Part shown: piece after piece, positions 1,588-11,506 of the stretch | Position numbering within the stretch: position 1 is the first letter of the stretch | Layout: the number at the start of each line of letters is the position of its first letter | From: Actinomycetes bacterium | GTDB taxonomy: Bacteria; Actinomycetota; Acidimicrobiia; Acidimicrobiales; Bog-793 | Direction of reading: 5' to 3' | NCBI GenBank assembly: GCA_021785095.1 | Contig: JAJYGM010000354.1 | Span: forward strand, 1 to 12,907 | Length of the DNA stretch: 12,907 nt | The notes under the pieces: generated by a model | Databases searched by the model: none | The model's input: only the letters and a program-made list of their open reading frames with translations | Told to the model about the DNA's origin: nothing | Program-made: the position numbers and the translations under genes

Positions 1588-2103
1588 ATGCCAAAGGACA
1601 TCGAAGAGGACGTCGCCGGGGACGACCTCGACGAAGACGCTCTCCAGGGCGAAAGCGACATCGAGGACCTCTCCGAGGACGAGGACCTGCTCGACGAGGA
1701 CGAGCTCGAGGATGACGACGAGATCGGCGAGGACGACGACGACGACGACGAGCTCGCCGACGACGGGCTGAGCGAGGAGGAGGACTCCGAGGAGGGCGCC
1801 GTCCGCACCGCGACGCACACGACCGAGGGCGACGAATCGGGCAGCGAGGACGAGGACGAGGACGAGCTCGACGACGATGACGTGGAGGCGAGCCTCGACG
1901 TCATCTTGAAGGAACGCCTCGTGGTCGAGGACGAGGAGCAGGATGACGAGGACGAGCCGGCCGATGCCGAGGACCGGGGCGACGGAAGCACGCGCGTCCT
2001 GCCGAAGCAGCCCGGCGAGTTCGTCTGCAGGTCCTGCTTCCTCGTGAAGAGCGAGACGCAGCTCGCCGATCCGAAGCGCATGCTCTGCAGGGACTGCGTC
2101 TGA
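1588..2103 (+). CDS. DUF4193-family acidic protein with C-terminal zinc ribbon
   Basis: The 171-residue protein has an extremely acidic, low-complexity N-terminal part (about residues 1-130, long Asp/Glu runs) followed by a compact C-terminal domain. The latter reads RVLPKQPGEFVCRSCFLV, with C147-x2-C150 and C167-x2-C170, a four-cysteine zinc-ribbon pattern. This C-terminal block matches the DUF4193 family of actinobacteria, whose members are usually about 100 residues; the acidic extension makes this one unusually long. No function is established for the family as far as I know. The acidic arm could mimic nucleic acid or contact a basic partner. ATG is preceded by AAGGGAG. It is the first gene of a four-gene run (31-nt gap to the next). 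Confidence 0.85.
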   Translation: MPKDIEEDVAGDDLDEDALQGESDIEDLSEDEDLLDEDELEDDDEIGEDDDDDDELADDGLSEEEDSEEGAVRTATHTTEGDESGSEDEDEDELDDDDVEASLDVILKERLVVEDEEQDDEDEPADAEDRGDGSTRVLPKQPGEFVCRSCFLVKSETQLADPKRMLCRDCV

Positions 2104-3206: not shown

Positions 3207-3634
3207 AGCCTCTCCAGCCCGTGCTTGCCGTCGGTGCTGTCGTGCTGCACGAGGGTCGGCTCCTCCTCGTTCGGCGCATGCAGCCTCCGGCGGTCGGCGC
3301 CTGGAGCGTCCCGGGCGGGCGTGTCGAGCCGGGGGAGACGCTCACAGCTGCCGTGGCCCGCGAGGTGCTCGAGGAGACCGGGCTACTGGTCGCAGTGGAC
3401 GAGCTCGTGGGCTGGGTGGAGCGGACGGGTGACGCGTACCACTTCGTGATCCTCGACTTCTTCGCCCACGTCCTCGGCGACGACCTCGAACCGGTTGCAG
3501 GCGACGATGCCGGCGAAGCTCGTTGGGTCGAGGCAGCGGACCTCGACGAGCTACCCCTCGTCGCCGGTCTGGCGGACTTCCTCCGTGACCACGGGGTCCA
3601 CCTCGGGACTGGGGGCGGGAGCAAGAAGGATTGA
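3203..3634 (+). CDS. Nudix hydrolase
   Basis: A 143-residue single-domain Nudix protein. The full signature Gx5Ex7REUxEExGU is present: G39, E45, R53, E54, E57, E58, G60, L61, with the Mg2+-binding glutamates intact. Nudix enzymes hydrolyse nucleoside diphosphates linked to another moiety. The framing sequences (LLLVRR, WSVPGGRVEPGE, and the later ARWVEAADLDELPLV) resemble ADP-ribose pyrophosphatase/MutT-like members, but substrate cannot be read from the sequence. The GTG start overlaps the stop of the acetyltransferase gene by 4 nt. Its last 84 nt overlap the 3' end of the opposite-strand 513-residue gene, so no room exists for a separate terminator. Confidence 0.92.
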   Translation: MKPLQPVLAVGAVVLHEGRLLLVRRMQPPAVGAWSVPGGRVEPGETLTAAVAREVLEETGLLVAVDELVGWVERTGDAYHFVILDFFAHVLGDDLEPVAGDDAGEARWVEAADLDELPLVAGLADFLRDHGVHLGTGGGSKKD

Positions 3635-5092
3635 CGCAGGCTCTTCGGGCGACGGCTCTGCGACCGGCTCTGCGACCGGCTCTGCGACCGGCTCTGCAGC
3701 CCGCTCTGCCTGCGGCTCGGGCCGGCGCGGCGGCCGCGCGGGCGGGCGGGCGGCCGGATGGGGCGGCGGCGGGATCGCCATGCCGAGCAGCCTGCCGAGT
3801 GCCGGGATGCGGCTAGCTGCGGCACGTGCCTGTCGCTCCACTCCACCGTCGGGGTCCTTCGGCAGGCCGACGGGCTTCACCTGGCGCCGCACGGGTGACT
3901 GCACGGCAGCCTCGAGGAGCGAGAGCCAGCGTTCCGGGGTGGTCTCCTCGGTCATCGCCTGACCTGCAGCCTCCGCAAGAGGCTTGACGAGGGCGGCCGG
4001 GAAGCGAGCGGTCGGCTCGGGTGGCTTGGCGGACAGCCGGAGCGCCTGGAGAACCCTGCCGTCTCCGAGCGCCTGTGTCAGGTGCTGCTCCCAGTCCTGG
4101 CGCAACTTCCTGACACGGCGGTCGAGGGTCTCCCGGAGATTGCGCTCGAGCTCCCTCCCGGCCTCGTCGCGAGGTGCCGCCCCGACGACGGTGGCGCGCA
4201 GGTCACGCAGCGTGATCTCGTCAGCCTTCTCGAGGGCCGCCTCGGCCCGGTCCAGCCAGACGGCGGCTTTCACGTCGCCGAGCAACTCCTCCGCGATGGC
4301 GATGATGGGTTCGCCCGAGGCGATCGGCCGCCCCTCTTCCTTCGCCCGCTGCTGTTCGTCCGTGAGCGCTTTGCGAAGGGCCGGCAGGCCACCTGCCGCA
4401 AGCCGCTCGGCGATCGCCCGCTGCTCGGGCGTGAGCGTCTCGAAGAGGCGGTTGCGGTGGGCCGTCCCGGGCTCGAAACGCGGGGGCATCCTCCGGCCCG
4501 GCTTCCCGCTCCCGGGCTCGCCACCCGCCCCGCCAGCGTCCCGTGCCGGGCGGCCGTGGGGCGCTCTCGCGTCACCGGACGCTGTCGCGCGCGGTGGGCG
4601 CTCCTCTCCGCGGGTGCGGTCGCCACCCTCGAAGCGCCTCGACCCGTCCCGCCGGCCGCCTGCAACGGTCGAACGGCCGGCTGCATCGCCCGACCGCTCG
4701 CCGTCACGGCGGCGTGGCGTTCGCTCACCGCGCCCAGCGCGCTGGTCGGCTCCCCGCGGACCGCGTCGCTCCCCCTCGCGACCGAAGCCTCCGCGGCGCT
4801 CCGGGCGACCGGCCAGCACCGTGGTGACACCGGGCGCGGAGCGCGGGGGACCGAGGTGCTCGATGCGATTGGTCGTGTCCTCGTGCTTCTCCTTCGGAGG
4901 GATGACGGACAGCACGGTGATGCCGTCGAGCTCGACCTCCACCTCCGCCCGCAGGACGTCCCCTACCTTGGAGTGAGGTGGGAGCACCGAGATCGGCACC
5001 ACGCCCCGGGGCTGGCGCGCACCGGCAGCTCGCCAGGTGTAGGTGTCGTCGTCTCGAGCGCTCGTCAGCTCGATGTCCATGCGGTTCGCCAT
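3551..5092 (-). CDS. Uncharacterised 513-residue protein with Arg/Gly-rich centre
   Basis: No family recognised. Four parts are visible: a small beta-rich N-terminal domain (about 6-70, ending VELDGITVLSVIPPKEK) that could be an OB/S1- or TRAM-like fold; an Arg/Gly/Asp-rich disordered stretch (about 83-200, several RGG-like clusters); a helical core (about 205-435, from LTPEQRAIAERLAAGGLPAL to ASRIPALGRLLG); and a Pro/Ala/Glu-rich tail with AEPV repeats. An OB-like domain plus RG-rich region suggests RNA binding, which is inference. Two in-frame ATGs (5092 and 5080) are possible starts; neither has a strong ribosome binding site. The 3' end overlaps the convergent Nudix gene by 84 nt. The acidic 78-residue gene lies 82 nt upstream on the same strand. 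Confidence 0.7.
   Translation of the reverse strand: MANRMDIELTSARDDDTYTWRAAGARQPRGVVPISVLPPHSKVGDVLRAEVEVELDGITVLSVIPPKEKHEDTTNRIEHLGPPRSAPGVTTVLAGRPERRGGFGREGERRGPRGADQRAGRGERTPRRRDGERSGDAAGRSTVAGGRRDGSRRFEGGDRTRGEERPPRATASGDARAPHGRPARDAGGAGGEPGSGKPGRRMPPRFEPGTAHRNRLFETLTPEQRAIAERLAAGGLPALRKALTDEQQRAKEEGRPIASGEPIIAIAEELLGDVKAAVWLDRAEAALEKADEITLRDLRATVVGAAPRDEAGRELERNLRETLDRRVRKLRQDWEQHLTQALGDGRVLQALRLSAKPPEPTARFPAALVKPLAEAAGQAMTEETTPERWLSLLEAAVQSPVRRQVKPVGLPKDPDGGVERQARAAASRIPALGRLLGMAIPPPPHPAARPPARPPRRPEPQAERAAEPVAEPVAEPVAEPSPEEPASILLAPAPSPEVDPVVTEEVRQTGDEG
3649..3695 (-). repeat. 12-bp tandem repeat coding AEPV
   Basis: The unit gcgaccggctct (+ strand) is repeated perfectly three times at 3660-3695, with a degenerate 11-bp copy at 3649-3659. 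On the - strand it encodes AEPV repeats in the C-terminal tail of the 513-residue protein. Unit length keeps frame. Confidence 0.9.
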
Positions 5093-6785: not shown

Positions 6786-7976
6786 CTAGGTGGGGGGCTC
6801 CAGCAGGGGCAGAGGGTGAGGGCGCCCGAGGAGGTAGCCCTGTCCGAAGGAGGCGCCGAGGTCGCGCAAGGCCTCGAGCTCCCCGGGAGTCTCGATGCCC
6901 TCGGCTACGACGGTCGAGCCGATCTCGGCCGCGAACGCCACGATGGCGGCGCCGAGCGCGCGTCTTGTTGAGCTGACGTCGATGCCACGGGTGAGCTCCG
7001 TGTCGAGCTTGATCATCTCCGGGCGCAGCCGGACGATGTGCTGCATGCTCGACCAGCCAGCACCGGCGTCGTCGACCGCGATCCGCACACCGGAGCGACG
7101 GAGCGCTCCGATGCCTTCCTCGATCCTCTCGTAGTCATCCACGCGGCTGTGCTCGGTCACCTCGAGGACGATCCGGTCCGCCGGGTAGCTCCGAAGGAGC
7201 CGTTCGAGCTCGTGCGAGACGAGCGTGGCGGGGGAGAGGTTCACCGAGAGGAACGCGTGCGAGGGAACGTGGTCGAGGTGCCCGAGTGCGGTCTCGAGTG
7301 CGATCATGTCGAGGGGCAGCTGGAGCCCGACGTCCGCTGCTCGCTTGAACCAGTGGTCCGGCGGCATCGGCGGGTACAGGCGGAAGCGGGCGAGTGCCTC
7401 CGCGCCGACGAGCTTCCCGCTTCGAAGGTCGATGATCGGCTGGAGCAGCATGTCGAGATTGCCCGTCTCGACCACCCCGTTCAGGACGGCGATGGTCGCG
7501 TCGCGCTCCCGGTTCTGTCGCTCGGCCTCCTCGTGGACTACGGCGAGCTCGAGCTCGCGGTGGTAGCGCTCGGTGATGTCCTCGGAGATCCCGAGGATGA
7601 ACCGGGCTTCTCCGTCGTCGCCGAAGATCGGGATCCTCTTCGTGTGCAGCACCCGCCGCCCGCGATAGCGGGTGGCCACGAACTCGGCTTCGATCTCTAT
7701 CATGCGACGCTCGGCGACGACGCGGCGATCGATCGCGGCGAGGAAGTCAGCATCCTCCTTCGGGAGGATGTCGTGGTCCCGAAGCCCGACGATCTCGGCC
7801 CGTGCGTATCCGAGGAGCTCTTCGGCGGCTCGGTTCAGCCGTACGAAGCGCAGGTCGTCTGCGGACTTCACGAAGACCATGTCGGGGATGTTCTCGACGA
7901 TCTGCTCGAGCATGCCGGCCTGGTCGCCGCTGTATCCGTTCACGCGCGGGTTCTCGGGCTCGACGGCCGTCGTCAT
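6786..7976 (-). CDS. PAS-EAL cyclic-di-GMP phosphodiesterase
   Basis: The 396-residue protein has a PAS sensor domain (about 21-137, with the PAC-type end ILGISEDITER), a short helical linker (about 138-170) and an EAL domain (about 172-392). EAL domains hydrolyse c-di-GMP to pGpG. The known metal and catalytic positions are all present: E193 of EAL, N246 in SVNLSP, E275 in LEVTE, D302 and D303 in VDDAGAG, K323 in IKLD, E359 in AEGIE and Q379 in GQGYLLGRP. There is no GGDEF domain, so it is predicted to degrade only. No membrane segment is seen; it should be cytoplasmic. Its ATG overlaps the stop of the serpin gene by 4 nt (ATGA), so it is the last gene of a sigma-serpin-EAL operon and probably translationally coupled. 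The PAS ligand is unknown. Confidence 0.93.
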   Translation of the reverse strand: MTTAVEPENPRVNGYSGDQAGMLEQIVENIPDMVFVKSADDLRFVRLNRAAEELLGYARAEIVGLRDHDILPKEDADFLAAIDRRVVAERRMIEIEAEFVATRYRGRRVLHTKRIPIFGDDGEARFILGISEDITERYHRELELAVVHEEAERQNRERDATIAVLNGVVETGNLDMLLQPIIDLRSGKLVGAEALARFRLYPPMPPDHWFKRAADVGLQLPLDMIALETALGHLDHVPSHAFLSVNLSPATLVSHELERLLRSYPADRIVLEVTEHSRVDDYERIEEGIGALRRSGVRIAVDDAGAGWSSMQHIVRLRPEMIKLDTELTRGIDVSSTRRALGAAIVAFAAEIGSTVVAEGIETPGELEALRDLGASFGQGYLLGRPHPLPLLEPPT

Positions 7977-9457
7977 GAAGCAACCGCCGCCGGATCGGCG
8001 ACGACCGCTTCGACGATGACGGCGCCGGTGGCGTCATCACGGATCAAGAAGACGAACGGGTGGTTGAAGGCGACGGCGACGGCATCGCGGCCGCCTGACA
8101 CGAGTGTCGAGACAGAGCCGGTCCCACCGCCGGCGTTCGTGCCGTGCTCGTCGACACGGATGGCGACGCTCTGGCCGACCATGTCGAGAGCCGTGGGCGT
8201 GCTGGTGATGCCGCCGAAGTCGGCGCCGGTGGAGAAGGCCTGGCGCACGCCGGCCGCTCGAAGCGCGCCGTTGCAGGATGACGCCGAGCCGAGAGACAAG
8301 CGCGGGAGCGCGAGATCGACAGTCGCCTGACGCAGCCCGGCCTCGAGGTGCGACAGCGAGGTCGGCGTCCACGAGTCGAGCATCGTCGTGAGCGACCCGG
8401 TCTCCGGCTCGATCGCGAGCGCAGAGAAACGCCCACCGGCATACGGCAGCTCGACGGCCCGCATGCCGTCGAGAGCGGCGGTCCGGAGGACGCCGCTCCA
8501 ATGCATCGTCGGGACCGAGACGGTTGCGCCGCTCGCGAGGTGGAACACGGCGGAGTGCGTCCGGCCGGGATCGAAGGCGAGCGCGCGTGACCAGCTGGCG
8601 TCGAAGTGGAACGCGTTGGCGAGCACGAACGCGGTCCTCCGAGTGATCGATCCCGGCGGCAGCAGCGGCGGGACCCGCAGGTGGCTCACCGAGCGCACCC
8701 ACGAGTTGATCGTCCTGGTCGTTGCCGCCGGGCGACCGGCGAAGTCCGCCTCCCAGATCCCTTCGCCGAAGTATCGAGCGAGGGCGTCGAGATAGGTGCC
8801 GTGCACGTGGAGGGTGCGCTCGAGGAAGAGGTAGTTGGCCTGCTCCAGCTGGACGTGGGACACCCGCTGATCGATCGTCAGCTGTTGCGAGAGCGCGTTC
8901 CAGAGCTGAGCCTGAGCAGAGGCAGACGTGCCGCCCATCCCGAGCGCCGTCGCGATCTGCGAGCCCGTCTGCCCGCGCGCTCCGAGCTCCAGCTGGACGA
9001 GGACCTCTCCGAGGCTGCTCGGGACGAGCACGACATTGCGGGTGGTTCCCGCGCTCCGATAGAGGCTGGCCGTCGTGGCGGTGAGCAGGGAGAGATCCGA
9101 CCGCGCCGCCTGCCTCGCGTCCGCGAGGACGCGCGGGGTCGTCAACCGCCTCATGTGCGCTGCCAGCTCGCCGAGGAGGGGAGCATGACCGCTCGCTGCT
9201 CGACTCTGCTGCTGGCGCGCCGGTGAGGGATGGGACAGCGGGACGAGTGCTGTCACGAGCGCCGCGACAGCTGCGACCGCCGCCGCAGCTGTCGCGGCAC
9301 GCCGGCGGCGGATGCGACCGGTTCCCCGCGCTCTCACGAGCTCCGGCGAGGGGAGCGCCGGAGCGAGTTCCGATGACCATGCCTCGAGTGCCCGCCGGAT
9401 GCGGGCGTCCGCCACGCTGTTGCGGTCGTCAGGCGTCCTGCGTCCGCTCGCAGTCAT
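7973..9457 (-). CDS. Membrane-anchored serpin, putative anti-sigma partner
   Basis: 494 residues from ATG 9457, chosen over a start at 9505 because GGAGG (complement of 9464-9468) sits 6 nt upstream. Layout: cytoplasmic tail 1-53 ending in Arg-rich RIRRRR, one transmembrane helix about 54-74 (Ala/Val-rich), a spacer, then a full serpin domain about 100-494 predicted outside the cell. Serpin marks: INSWV (250-254), VLANAFHFDASW (278-289), VELPYAGG (335-342), hinge VDEHGTNAGGGT (435-446) and FNHPFVFLIRD (464-474). The hinge has T440 at P14 and small residues at P12-P9, as expected of an inhibitory serpin that traps serine proteases by loop insertion. Overlap with the sigma gene is 29 nt, the position where anti-sigma genes usually lie. 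The short Arg-rich tail could bind the sigma factor, but I see no recognised anti-sigma domain. Confidence 0.9.
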   Translation of the reverse strand: MTASGRRTPDDRNSVADARIRRALEAWSSELAPALPSPELVRARGTGRIRRRRAATAAAAVAAVAALVTALVPLSHPSPARQQQSRAASGHAPLLGELAAHMRRLTTPRVLADARQAARSDLSLLTATTASLYRSAGTTRNVVLVPSSLGEVLVQLELGARGQTGSQIATALGMGGTSASAQAQLWNALSQQLTIDQRVSHVQLEQANYLFLERTLHVHGTYLDALARYFGEGIWEADFAGRPAATTRTINSWVRSVSHLRVPPLLPPGSITRRTAFVLANAFHFDASWSRALAFDPGRTHSAVFHLASGATVSVPTMHWSGVLRTAALDGMRAVELPYAGGRFSALAIEPETGSLTTMLDSWTPTSLSHLEAGLRQATVDLALPRLSLGSASSCNGALRAAGVRQAFSTGADFGGITSTPTALDMVGQSVAIRVDEHGTNAGGGTGSVSTLVSGGRDAVAVAFNHPFVFLIRDDATGAVIVEAVVADPAAVAS

Positions 9458-9947
9458 CTGTCGCCTCCAGCGCGTCGAGAGCGGCCGAGAGGTGGAGGCG
9501 TCCACGGCTCAGCCATGATTTCACGGTGCCGATGGGGACGCCCATCTCCGTCGCGATCTCGTGATTCGTGAGGCCGAGCAGATAGTGGAGAACGAGGGCC
9601 TGCCGATGCTCGGGTGACAGGGTCGAGAGAGCGGCTGCCAGCTCGAGCCGGGAGCGGTCGCCGGGATCCTCCTCGACGACCTGCTGAGGCAAGGGTTGCT
9701 CGCTGAAGCGCCGTCTCCGCCTGTTCGAGTTCTTGGCGAGGTTGAAGGCAACTCGCCTCACCCATGCGTGCGGGTCGTCGAGGTGCGCCACGCGCTCCCA
9801 ACGCGTCCATGCCCGGACATATGCCTCTTGGACGACATCGAGGGCTTCGGCGGGGTCGTTCGTGAAGGCGAAGATCTGGCGCGCGAGACGCGCGGATCCG
9901 TCGCGATAGAAGGCGTCGAAGCCTTCCGTGGAACTCGCCCCCAACAC
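9429..9947 (-). CDS. ECF-type RNA polymerase sigma factor (SigE-like)
   Basis: 172 residues with sigma region 2 (about 10-72: FDAFYRD..., DVVQEAYVRAWTRW, DPHAWVRRVAFNLA) and region 4 (about 105-157: LSPEHRQALVLHYLLGL, helix-turn-helix NHEIATEMGVPIGTVKSWLSR). The linker is short and there is no extra C-terminal domain, typical of extracytoplasmic-function factors of the actinobacterial SigE-like group. GTG 9947 is the assumed start; TTG 9944 is the alternative. A TATACC box 7 nt before the GTG suggests a leaderless message. Its 3' end overlaps the serpin gene by 29 nt, and the serpin ribosome binding site lies inside this gene, so the two products should be made in fixed proportion. It is divergent from a secreted protease gene, a likely but unproven target. 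Confidence 0.93.
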   Translation of the reverse strand: MLGASSTEGFDAFYRDGSARLARQIFAFTNDPAEALDVVQEAYVRAWTRWERVAHLDDPHAWVRRVAFNLAKNSNRRRRRFSEQPLPQQVVEEDPGDRSRLELAAALSTLSPEHRQALVLHYLLGLTNHEIATEMGVPIGTVKSWLSRGRLHLSAALDALEATDDCERTQDA

Positions 9948-10156
9948 TCCCCACGGTATACATCACACACGAGCGCCCCAAAAGGTTGCACCTCAGAAAA
10001 AAAAAATCTAGAGGTTTTCAGGGACTTTTCCCGGTGTCATGCTCGCAGTGCGGACGCACGCGGGGAGCTCCGGGGGTCAGCAGTGTGGCGCTCCATGCTG
10101 AAGGTCTGCCGAGGCTGTCGCGGGGGTCAGCGAACCTACAACGCACAGGAGGGCAG
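9948..10156. other. Divergent regulatory region with A10 tract and direct repeats
   Basis: The 209 bp between the sigma and protease genes holds an AT-rich island (about 9978-10030) with ten consecutive A at 9997-10006, rare in this genome and possibly an UP-type or bending element. CGGGGGTCAGC occurs twice as a perfect 11-bp direct repeat at 10071-10081 and 10121-10131, exactly 50 bp apart. No clear sigma70 promoter for the protease was found; TACAAC at 10137-10142 is a weak -10 candidate. Confidence 0.5.
9955..9990 (-). promoter_or_regulatory. Candidate promoter of the sigma-serpin-EAL operon
   Basis: On the - strand, TATACC (9960 to 9955) lies 7 nt before the GTG start and would give a leaderless transcript; no good sigma70 -35 box accompanies it. 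Alternatively, TGCAACC (9990 to 9984) resembles the AAC-type -35 motif of ECF promoters, with the -10 region falling near 9967 (TGTGATG), which would allow autoregulation. The two readings exclude each other in detail. Confidence 0.3.
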
Positions 10157-11506
10157 ATGTCTCGCCATCAACTCGTCCGACCCCTCGGCTCTGCTGCCGC
10201 CGCCTTTGCCTGCATGGCGTTGTCGGTGTCGCTGCTCGCCTCGCCCGCCGGGGCACAGGAGCAGGGGGTCAGGGCGGCATCGCTGTTGCACCGGCGCTTG
10301 CCTGCGGCGGAGGTGTCGGCCACTCCGAGAGAGGTGGCGGCGGCATCCGCGCTCGTGACGCCGGGCGACCCGCTCGGGATGTGGGAGCAGCGCATGTCGA
10401 GGGACTTCCCGGACACCTATGGAGGGCTGTACGTGGACGCGTCGGGCAACCTCGTGATCCCGACCGTCGGTGCGGCCCGAGGCTTGCGGGCATGGGCGAA
10501 GGCCAACCTCTCCGCAGTCGTGACCCAGTACCTGTCCGACGCCCTTGGTACCGGCGCGCTGCTCGGCCGGCGCACGTCTGCGGGAACCCTCGGGACCAGC
10601 CGGGCCGCCGGGGCACCGGCGCTCACCTTCACGACGGCGCGGAGGAGCCTGGCGGACCTCACGGTTCTCAAGGCCGACATCCTTGCAAACCGGCGTTTTG
10701 CCGAGGCAGGCGTCGTCGGTGCCGGGATCGACGTGAAGAACGGGGCCGTCTCGGTCACGACGACAGGCGGTTCGATCGACGCGACCCTTCGAGCGGACTA
10801 CGGCTCAGAGGTGGAGACCACCGCTGCCACCAGTTCCTCGCTCGACGCGTCGCGCACGTCCGACACGCCGCCATGGAACGGCGGCGACATGATCGGGTCC
10901 TCCTCGGGGACGCTCTGCACCTTGGGTTTCGGCATCCACGACACCGCCGGCGACACCTACTCGCTCACGGCCGGCCACTGCGGTTACAACACCTGGTACA
11001 ACGTCCCGCCAAGCAGAGGCTCGCTCGATGACAGCACCCGTGTCGGCACTACGGTCTCCGGCTCGAAGTCCACCTGGGGTGTCGATGCACAGCTCGTCAG
11101 GGACAGCTCGTCGTGCATCTCCTGGGGTTCGGGCACGACGCGGTTGTTCATCACCGGTGCCGCGGATCCGCCGCAAGGCGCGACGATCTGGTCGGAGGGT
11201 TCGGTCACCGGTCAGGAGAGCGGCCGTGTTGTCACCTACGACTGGAGCGGCAACGTCGGCGGCGAGCAGCTCAGCAACCTCGACCTCACGACAGCCGCCC
11301 CGCAGCCCGGCGACAGCGGTGGCCCGGTGGTCTACCCGACCGGCTTCGGCCCCCTCGCCGGCGGCTCTGTCGTCGGCCTCATCGTCTACGCAGACGGCAC
11401 GTCCGTCGGCGTGACCCAACTCATCGATGCAGAGATCTTCGACTACTCGGTACGGCTCGGCACGAGCCTCGCGGTGAACACCTCGGCCAACGGCTACAGC
11501 TGTTGA
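10157..11506 (+). CDS. Secreted S1 (chymotrypsin-fold) serine protease with propeptide
   Basis: ATG 10157 is chosen because AGGAGGG (10147-10153) precedes it and a signal peptide follows at once: basic MSRHQLVR, hydrophobic core 10-28, and probable cleavage after SPAGA (29-33). Of 449 residues, about 34-240 form a propeptide, with a segment near 187-200 (VGAGIDVKNGAVSV) that resembles propeptides of the alpha-lytic/streptogrisin type. The mature domain starts near 240. The catalytic triad is visible: H274 in TAGHC, D310 in WGVDAQ and S387 in GDSGGP. C264 and C275 match the disulfide around the catalytic histidine; C320 and C449 may also pair. No membrane anchor or wall signal is present, so it should be released. 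It is transcribed away from the sigma-serpin operon and ends 15 nt from the convergent lyase gene. Pro-dependent folding is likely by analogy. Confidence 0.93.
   Translation: MSRHQLVRPLGSAAAAFACMALSVSLLASPAGAQEQGVRAASLLHRRLPAAEVSATPREVAAASALVTPGDPLGMWEQRMSRDFPDTYGGLYVDASGNLVIPTVGAARGLRAWAKANLSAVVTQYLSDALGTGALLGRRTSAGTLGTSRAAGAPALTFTTARRSLADLTVLKADILANRRFAEAGVVGAGIDVKNGAVSVTTTGGSIDATLRADYGSEVETTAATSSSLDASRTSDTPPWNGGDMIGSSSGTLCTLGFGIHDTAGDTYSLTAGHCGYNTWYNVPPSRGSLDDSTRVGTTVSGSKSTWGVDAQLVRDSSSCISWGSGTTRLFITGAADPPQGATIWSEGSVTGQESGRVVTYDWSGNVGGEQLSNLDLTTAAPQPGDSGGPVVYPTGFGPLAGGSVVGLIVYADGTSVGVTQLIDAEIFDYSVRLGTSLAVNTSANGYSC

What the first reader, a model, noticed from the sequence alone, without database searches (positions are those of the whole stretch)
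6786..11506. Sigma factor, membrane serpin and c-di-GMP phosphodiesterase operon facing a secreted protease
Seen: an ECF sigma gene overlaps a transmembrane serpin gene by 29 nt; the serpin overlaps a PAS-EAL gene by 4 nt; a secreted S1 protease is divergent from the sigma gene. Known: ECF factors are usually held by a co-transcribed membrane anti-sigma factor, and inhibitory serpins change shape irreversibly when attacked by a serine protease. Inference: the serpin takes the anti-sigma seat and acts as a one-shot protease detector whose collapse releases the sigma factor, with c-di-GMP breakdown as a second output. The protease could be the trigger, a target gene, or both. I know of no described system of this form.
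Basis: partly seen in the sequence, partly recalled or inferred. Interest (0 to 1): 0.88.

Follow-up and report, generated by a model that had tools for sequence, protein, structure and literature searches.

The report
Membrane serpin in an anti-sigma seat
In uncultured actinobacteria a protein of the protease-trapping (serpin) family is anchored in the membrane and encoded in overlap with a gene switch, which suggests that the cell uses it to feel protease attack and turn genes on.

Summary
The anatomy is confirmed. An ECF sigma gene (TIGR02983) overlaps by 29 nt a gene for a single-pass membrane serpin; the serpin gene overlaps a PAS-EAL gene by 4 nt; a secreted S1 protease is divergent. The host is an Acidimicrobiales relative. 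The sigma-serpin pair recurs. Intact pairs occur in the window's clade, in a second clade of its family, in a second family of the order and in another class of the phylum. The tailed serpins are not one clade (AU test on a 42-row subset). Of the serpin ORFs with enough upstream DNA, an intact sigma precedes 5 of 7 with a long cytoplasmic tail (the other two show remnants) and 1 of 112 others. Some close relatives of these sigmas have tail+TM proteins with beta-propeller ectodomains in the same seat, so the serpin looks like one exchangeable module. RCL hinges look insertable. I judge the serpin to be the ectodomain of a class-II-like anti-sigma factor that senses serine proteases (0.55). Closest precedent: RsiV, which both inhibits and senses lysozyme. 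Binding, cleavage and release are untested. The EAL and protease neighbours are not general. Two species keep the tailed serpin after losing sigma, which argues for an inhibitor role too.

The parts
9429..9947 (-). ECF sigma factor, SigE family (TIGR02983), 172 aa
7973..9457 (-). membrane serpin, 494 aa from the likely ATG (510 aa from GTG at 9505); overlaps sigma by 29 nt
9311..9457 (-). cytoplasmic tail (residues 1-49), two predicted helices 12-30 and 38-43, Arg-rich end; candidate sigma-binding part
   Evidence: AF2 model; conserved in P0002, P0004, P0006
9248..9310 (-). single transmembrane helix (residues 50-70)
   Evidence: hydropathy
7991..9067 (-). extracytoplasmic serpin domain (residues 131-489)
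   Evidence: PF00079; PDB matches
8057..8149 (-). reactive centre loop with hinge E-H-G-T-N-A-G-G-G-T
   Evidence: alignment to conserpin
6786..7976 (-). PAS-EAL c-di-GMP phosphodiesterase, 396 aa, catalytic motifs present by eye; 4-nt overlap with serpin
   Evidence: orthologue next to a serpin end in G007 C132
10157..11506 (+). secreted S1 (streptogrisin/alpha-lytic type) protease, 449 aa, divergent from sigma
9948..10156 (.). intergenic region between sigma and protease; no sigma-70-type promoter found; ECF promoters not analysed

Best explanation
The serpin is the extracytoplasmic sensor of a membrane anti-sigma factor. Its 49-residue cytoplasmic tail (two short helices and an Arg-rich end, laid out like a class II anti-sigma factor) holds the overlapping SigE-family sigma factor at the membrane, and its ectodomain is an inhibitory serpin. 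A serine protease outside the cell cuts the reactive centre loop, the serpin snaps irreversibly and traps the protease, and the changed or loaded ectodomain makes the anti-sigma factor a substrate for regulated intramembrane proteolysis, which frees sigma. Shown here: gene order, domain make-up, the shared tail+TM seat, recurrence of the pair in separate lineages, and other ectodomains in the same seat. Inferred: sigma binding by the tail, loop attack as the signal, and the release step.
For: 1) In 22 of the 30 loci fetched for the closest sigma relatives (window species included; one search lists many more rows) the gene directly downstream overlaps the sigma stop and encodes a protein with one N-terminal hydrophobic helix behind a mostly basic stretch; the serpin sits in that seat. 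2) Of nine such partners scanned, four have BNR/Vps10-like propeller matches above Pfam's cut-offs (L146, L147, L148, L159), L154 one below it, four none. L159's sigma is sister to the serpin-linked L013/L014 sigmas. 3) Sigma plus tailed serpin in G001, G007 (17-nt overlap), G021 (17 nt), G343 (1-nt gap), G530 (11-nt overlap). 4) All tailed serpins as one clade: AU p 6e-69 on 42 rows; 4 changes, 3 forced, on the 134-row tree. Serpin-linked sigmas: 4 changes, 3 forced. 5) Intact sigma before 5 of 7 tailed serpins against 1 of 112 others, Fisher p 7e-7, rows not independent. 6) Tail profile: 5 of 19 weak non-self matches lie directly behind a sigma gene. 7) Gly-Thr at P15-P14 and mostly small residues after it in the 12 anchored serpins examined. 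8) Serine protease genes beside serpins: divergent S1 (window), S8 9 nt downstream (G007), an S1 homologue 38 nt upstream of a lipoprotein serpin in G130.
Against: No Pfam anti-sigma domain in the tail at E 1e-3. Tail similarity to other partners is weak (E 8e-5 to 5e-3), and the best weak match (L126, 1.1e-4) is not behind a sigma gene. In G030 and G003 (genus g3) the sigma gene is only a remnant while the tailed serpin with an intact hinge persists, so the serpin has a use without sigma. In G645 a sigma gene precedes a lipoprotein serpin without cytoplasmic tail, and in a Ruminococcus contig serpins follow a separate sigma/anti-sigma-like pair: serpins can simply be sigma targets. Glu at P17 of the hinge is missing in the second clade (Pro) and in G530 (Gly); the window has GGG where most have AAA. 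No protease gene was recognised beside the pairs of G021, G343 and G530. No binding, cleavage or expression data exist.
Confidence: 0.55

Rival explanations
1. The serpin is an ordinary membrane-tethered protease inhibitor that the sigma factor autoregulates; the tail is only an anchor and sigma is controlled by something else.
For: Most serpins scanned look like surface lipoproteins (101 of 129 ORFs have a lipobox-like motif by a loose pattern). Sigma can be lost while the serpin stays. L195 and L011 show serpins behind a sigma gene or a sigma/anti-sigma-like unit.
Against: No other anti-sigma candidate was recognised in the ORFs read around the pairs. The tail is conserved in sequence in the window's clade and long tails were seen almost only in sigma-linked serpins. 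The same seat holds non-serpin tail+TM proteins beside sister sigmas.
Confidence: 0.25
3. Chance neighbours: sigma and serpin are functionally unrelated.
For: Only 6 of 122 serpin ORFs with at least 900 nt upstream have a sigma gene directly before them.
Against: Overlapping reading frames, the tail+TM layout and recurrence in separate lineages.
Confidence: 0.03

Closest known systems
RsiV / sigma-V of Bacillus subtilis (abstract and passages of PMC4183432 and PMC5014341)
   Same: Membrane anti-sigma factor whose ectodomain both inhibits and senses an attacking enzyme (lysozyme); binding leads to signal peptidase cleavage and release of an ECF sigma.
   Different: Ectodomain and target differ (lysozyme, active-site block); a serpin would act by irreversible covalent trapping and its own fold change. 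Release step here unknown.
RsgI anti-sigma-I factors of Clostridium thermocellum and Acetivibrio (passages of PMC12484212, PMC3413522, PMC3990059)
   Same: Anti-sigma family with exchangeable extracellular sensor modules.
   Different: Modules there sense polysaccharide; sigma-I is not of this SigE family (recalled); no serpin module in the passages seen.
[quoted passage not shown]
   Same: Two alpha-helices that contact sigma-4 and sigma-2; same layout as the predicted tail.
   Different: No sequence relation was tested; binding here not tested.
Bacterial serpins such as miropin, Bifidobacterium and cellulosomal serpins (passages of PMC8233489 and PMC12484212)
   Same: Serpin fold; PMC8233489 notes membrane-anchored prokaryotic serpins and hinge motifs.
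   Different: Those are described as inhibitors; that they lack a cytoplasmic tail and sigma partner is recalled, not tested.

Membership tests
Serpin (PF00079), inhibitory type | full serpin domain | tested here: met
   model matches several cleaved serpins at rmsd 2.0-2.6
Serpin (PF00079), inhibitory type | hinge consensus: Gly P15, Thr/Ser P14, small residues P12-P9 | tested here: met
   EHGTNAGGGT; the consensus is recalled, its existence mentioned in PMC8233489
Serpin (PF00079), inhibitory type | SDS-stable complex with a protease | not testable with these tools
   bench assay
SigE-family ECF sigma factor (TIGR02983) | score above the curated cut-off, regions 2 and 4 present | tested here: met
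   145.0 bits against 141.55
Membrane anti-sigma factor, class II-like | gene adjacent to and overlapping the sigma gene | tested here: met
Membrane anti-sigma factor, class II-like | short helical cytoplasmic tail and one TM helix | tested here: met
   mean pLDDT of the tail and TM blocks only 47-76
Membrane anti-sigma factor, class II-like | tail binds and inhibits the sigma factor | not testable with these tools
   two-hybrid or reporter needed
Class I anti-sigma factor (ASDI / zinc anti-sigma) | recognisable anti-sigma domain | tested here: not met
   only PF00079 at E 1e-3; NCBIfam CU044_5270 match E 0.013, below its cut-off
RsiV-type receptor anti-sigma | RsiV-like ectodomain | tested here: not met
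   the ectodomain matches the serpin family only; it may work like RsiV without being one
S1 peptidase | catalytic triad and chymotrypsin-type relatives | tested here: met
   motifs TAGHC and GDSGGP and an Asp read by eye
EAL phosphodiesterase | EAL domain with catalytic residues | tested here: met
   E 3e-52; E, N, E, DD, K, E, Q positions read by eye against a recalled consensus

The most novel reading that the evidence does not exclude
Actinobacteria have more than once joined a serpin to an anti-sigma tail, making a suicide sensor: each molecule reports one protease attack by an irreversible fold change and covalent capture, so that the cell both disarms the protease and counts attacks through sigma release. 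To my knowledge this would be the first serpin acting as a transmembrane signal receptor.
Probability: 0.45. Interest if true: 0.9.

Novelty: new variant of a known kind. Interest (0 to 1): 0.78.

Why it matters
Serpins are known as inhibitors and carriers; a serpin wired to a sigma factor would be an irreversible protease counter. It would extend the RsiV principle (the inhibitor is the receptor) to proteases, in two defined proteins that can be moved to a laboratory host and tested with a reporter.

Tried and rejected
Scan of genome contigs with the serpin gave one locus, a Ruminococcus contig. The first classification of serpin N-termini failed because the profile included the N-terminus; it was redone with a core profile. 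Searches in the family and class of G530 and the family of G343 added no new pair; two partial G730 pieces (L221, L222) were not scanned for sigma. The protease was sought in 147 relatives (2 genomes with matches, G001 included) and 397 of the order (4 with matches, G001 included): it is not a general partner. A sigma-70 promoter scan found none; ECF promoters were not analysed. EAL and protease homologues share exact contig lengths 36359, 13318 and 1365085, which suggests linkage in three more genomes, but none of the 115 serpin hits listed has those contig lengths, and I could not fetch the contigs, so what lies between is unknown; a chance length coincidence was also seen (10438). Rows without a locus that I did not ask for, mostly partial matches, are outside the 125 loci scanned. 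The AU tests on the 134-row serpin tree did not finish and were replaced by one on a 42-row subset that I chose. Literature: listings of nine searches and abstracts or passages of ten papers; several listed papers that hold both words were not opened, and only open-access papers are in that library.

Full report
WHAT IS THERE. On the minus strand the window carries an ECF sigma factor (9429-9947), a serpin with a cytoplasmic tail and one membrane helix (7973-9457 from the likely ATG) and a PAS-EAL protein (6786-7976), with overlaps of 29 and 4 nt. On the plus strand, divergent, is a secreted S1 protease (10157-11506). Some database relatives of the EAL and protease are named Acidimicrobiales bacterium. 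The window's own assembly is not held; the nearest genome, G001, carries the same locus at 99-100% protein identity.

THE SEAT. I read the gene behind each sigma in the 30 loci that one search returned for the closest sigma relatives in 60 genomes (one locus per genome, window species included; many more matches were listed without loci). In 22 of 30 it overlaps the sigma stop (starts -4 to -77 nt) and encodes a protein with one strong hydrophobic stretch near the N-terminus, mostly behind basic residues. The other 8 showed no such gene in reach (contig ends, other frames or other genes). The serpin gene has this layout. Pfam on nine of these partners gave BNR/Vps10-type propeller matches above the cut-off in four (L146, L147, L148, L159), one below it (L154) and nothing in four. 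L146 belongs to the window sigma's nearest non-self relative (48%); L159's sigma is the sister of the serpin-linked sigmas L013 and L014 with strong support. So the ectodomain behind these sigmas differs between close relatives, and the serpin is one option. A profile of the tail (A1, four sequences) gave 20 matches in 118 genomes, 19 of them weak and not the window's own. Five of the 19 lie directly behind a sigma gene on the same strand, four of these non-serpin proteins (L127, L129, L137, L143) and one the G007 serpin. Their E-values are 1.3e-4 to 5e-3; the best weak match of all (L126, 1.1e-4) is not behind a sigma gene. This is support, not proof.

CONSERVATION OF THE PAIR. Serpins (PF00079) occur in 68 of 397 genomes of the order, 64 of 396 of the phylum sample and 6 of 35 of the family. 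In 125 loci scanned, 6 of 122 serpin ORFs with at least 900 nt upstream have a sigma gene directly before them: G001 (the window's species), G007, G021, G343, G530 and G645. In the first five the serpin has a cytoplasmic tail and membrane helix; in G645 it is a lipoprotein by eye. Of 129 serpin ORFs with a readable domain start, 101 show a lipobox-like motif by a loose pattern, 8 no helix, and 20 another helix. By eye seven of the 20 have a long tail with upstream DNA; one more (L016) begins at a contig edge, and L019 is ambiguous and was counted as not tailed. Five of the seven have an intact sigma before them; in the other two (L015, L017) only remnants of the sigma end remain. Against 1 of the 112 other ORFs with at least 1000 nt upstream this gives Fisher p 7e-7, a figure that ignores relatedness: L013 and L014 are one clade.

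HOW MANY ORIGINS. On the 134-row serpin tree the label 'tailed' (12 rows: seven loci, the edge case L016, and database proteins P0002, P0004, P0006 and P0011, whose neighbours I could not see) needs 4 changes, 3 of them forced by supported branches; adding the G645 lipoprotein makes 5 and 4. An AU test on a 42-row subset rejects the tailed serpins as one clade (p 6e-69). The ten tailed rows of the window's own family need 2 changes with 1 forced, so one origin there is not ruled out. A change can be a loss as well as a gain, so the plain reading is at least three gains (window's family, G343, G530) unless losses are invoked. On the sigma tree (41 rows) the five serpin-linked sigmas need 4 changes, 3 forced.

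IS THE SERPIN STILL A TRAP? The hinge has Gly-Thr at P15-P14 and mostly small residues after it in the 12 anchored serpins examined. Exceptions: Thr at P10 in P0002 and P0006, Val at P9 in P0011; Glu at P17 is missing in the second clade (Pro) and in G530 (Gly). The AlphaFold2 model (mean pLDDT 83.5, 33 sequences) places residues 439-452, the loop, as a strand. Many of its PDB matches below 3 A rmsd are titled cleaved, while antithrombin and other entries align at 12-16 A; some cleaved entries (3cvm, 5ei0, 3eox) do too. AlphaFold tends to give relaxed serpins (recalled), so this says only that insertion is sterically possible. The model gives two helices, 12-30 and 38-43, before the membrane helix 50-70, with block confidence 53-76: the layout of the class II factor CnrY described in a passage of PMC7406223.

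PROTEASES AND OTHER NEIGHBOURS. The window has a divergent S1 protease. G007's second-clade locus has GH44, sigma, serpin and S8 subtilase in a row on one strand, with a 40-nt gap, a 17-nt overlap and a 9-nt gap. G130, of another family, has a homologue of the window's protease (37% identity over the matched part, with a legume-lectin domain) 38 nt before a lipoprotein serpin. Three neighbourhoods thus join a serpin to serine proteases of two unrelated families. Around the pairs of G021, G343 and G530 Pfam on ten neighbouring ORFs showed no such protease. EAL follows the serpin in G001 and, at 66% identity, in G007 contig C132, which starts 26 codons before the serpin end; no relative of it lies in the loci L013, L014, L034, L177 or L195. 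So EAL is a lineage-specific output, if an output at all.

MECHANISM. I commit to the receptor anti-sigma model (0.55). RsiV gives the logic: an anti-sigma factor whose ectodomain inhibits lysozyme and, when bound, is cut so that sigma is freed (abstract and passages of PMC4183432 and PMC5014341). A serpin would make this irreversible and specific for serine proteases. Each step beyond gene order and domains is inference.

AGAINST. Two species of genus g3 lost the sigma but keep the tailed serpin. Other serpins lie behind a sigma gene without any tail (G645) or behind a separate sigma/anti-sigma-like pair (Ruminococcus). The tail has no recognised anti-sigma domain.

NOVELTY. Searches of the open-access library for serpin with anti-sigma factor, anti-sigma, extracytoplasmic function, and sigma factor with related terms listed no paper whose title or abstract start describes such a pair. 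In the passages I read of PMC10059941, PMC3413522, PMC9569102, PMC3990059 and PMC12484212 the two words occur apart; other listed papers were not opened, and subscription papers are not covered. I rate it a new variant of receptor-type anti-sigma systems.

Noticed in passing
L015 3321-6159 and L017 8900-10582: Sigma gene decayed to remnants upstream of an intact tailed serpin in two species of one genus: loss of sigma with retention of the serpin.
   Followed up: partly
L011 348-7338 (Ruminococcus MAG contig): Sigma gene, anti-sigma-like membrane protein, another lipoprotein-like protein, then four serpin genes, the last cut by the contig end.
   Followed up: partly
L054 295-3833: S1 protease with C-terminal legume-lectin domain 38 nt upstream of a lipoprotein serpin, no sigma found: a likely protease/inhibitor pair.
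   Followed up: partly
L013 4386-12148: GH44 glycosidase, sigma, serpin and S8 subtilase in one row: hints that the regulon concerns secreted hydrolases.
   Followed up: partly
L117, L181, L190: In one genus of another family a lipoprotein-like serpin gene lies within about 1 kb upstream of a sigma gene, with a membrane partner seen in L117 and L190.
   Followed up: no
G730 contig 138, 35836-38297 (L098, L221, L222): A serpin gene next to two half-length serpin ORFs that together cover one domain.
   Followed up: no
window 1588-2103 and 3551-5092: A very acidic 171-aa protein ending in CxxC motifs (not searched), and a 513-aa protein without Pfam match.
   Followed up: no
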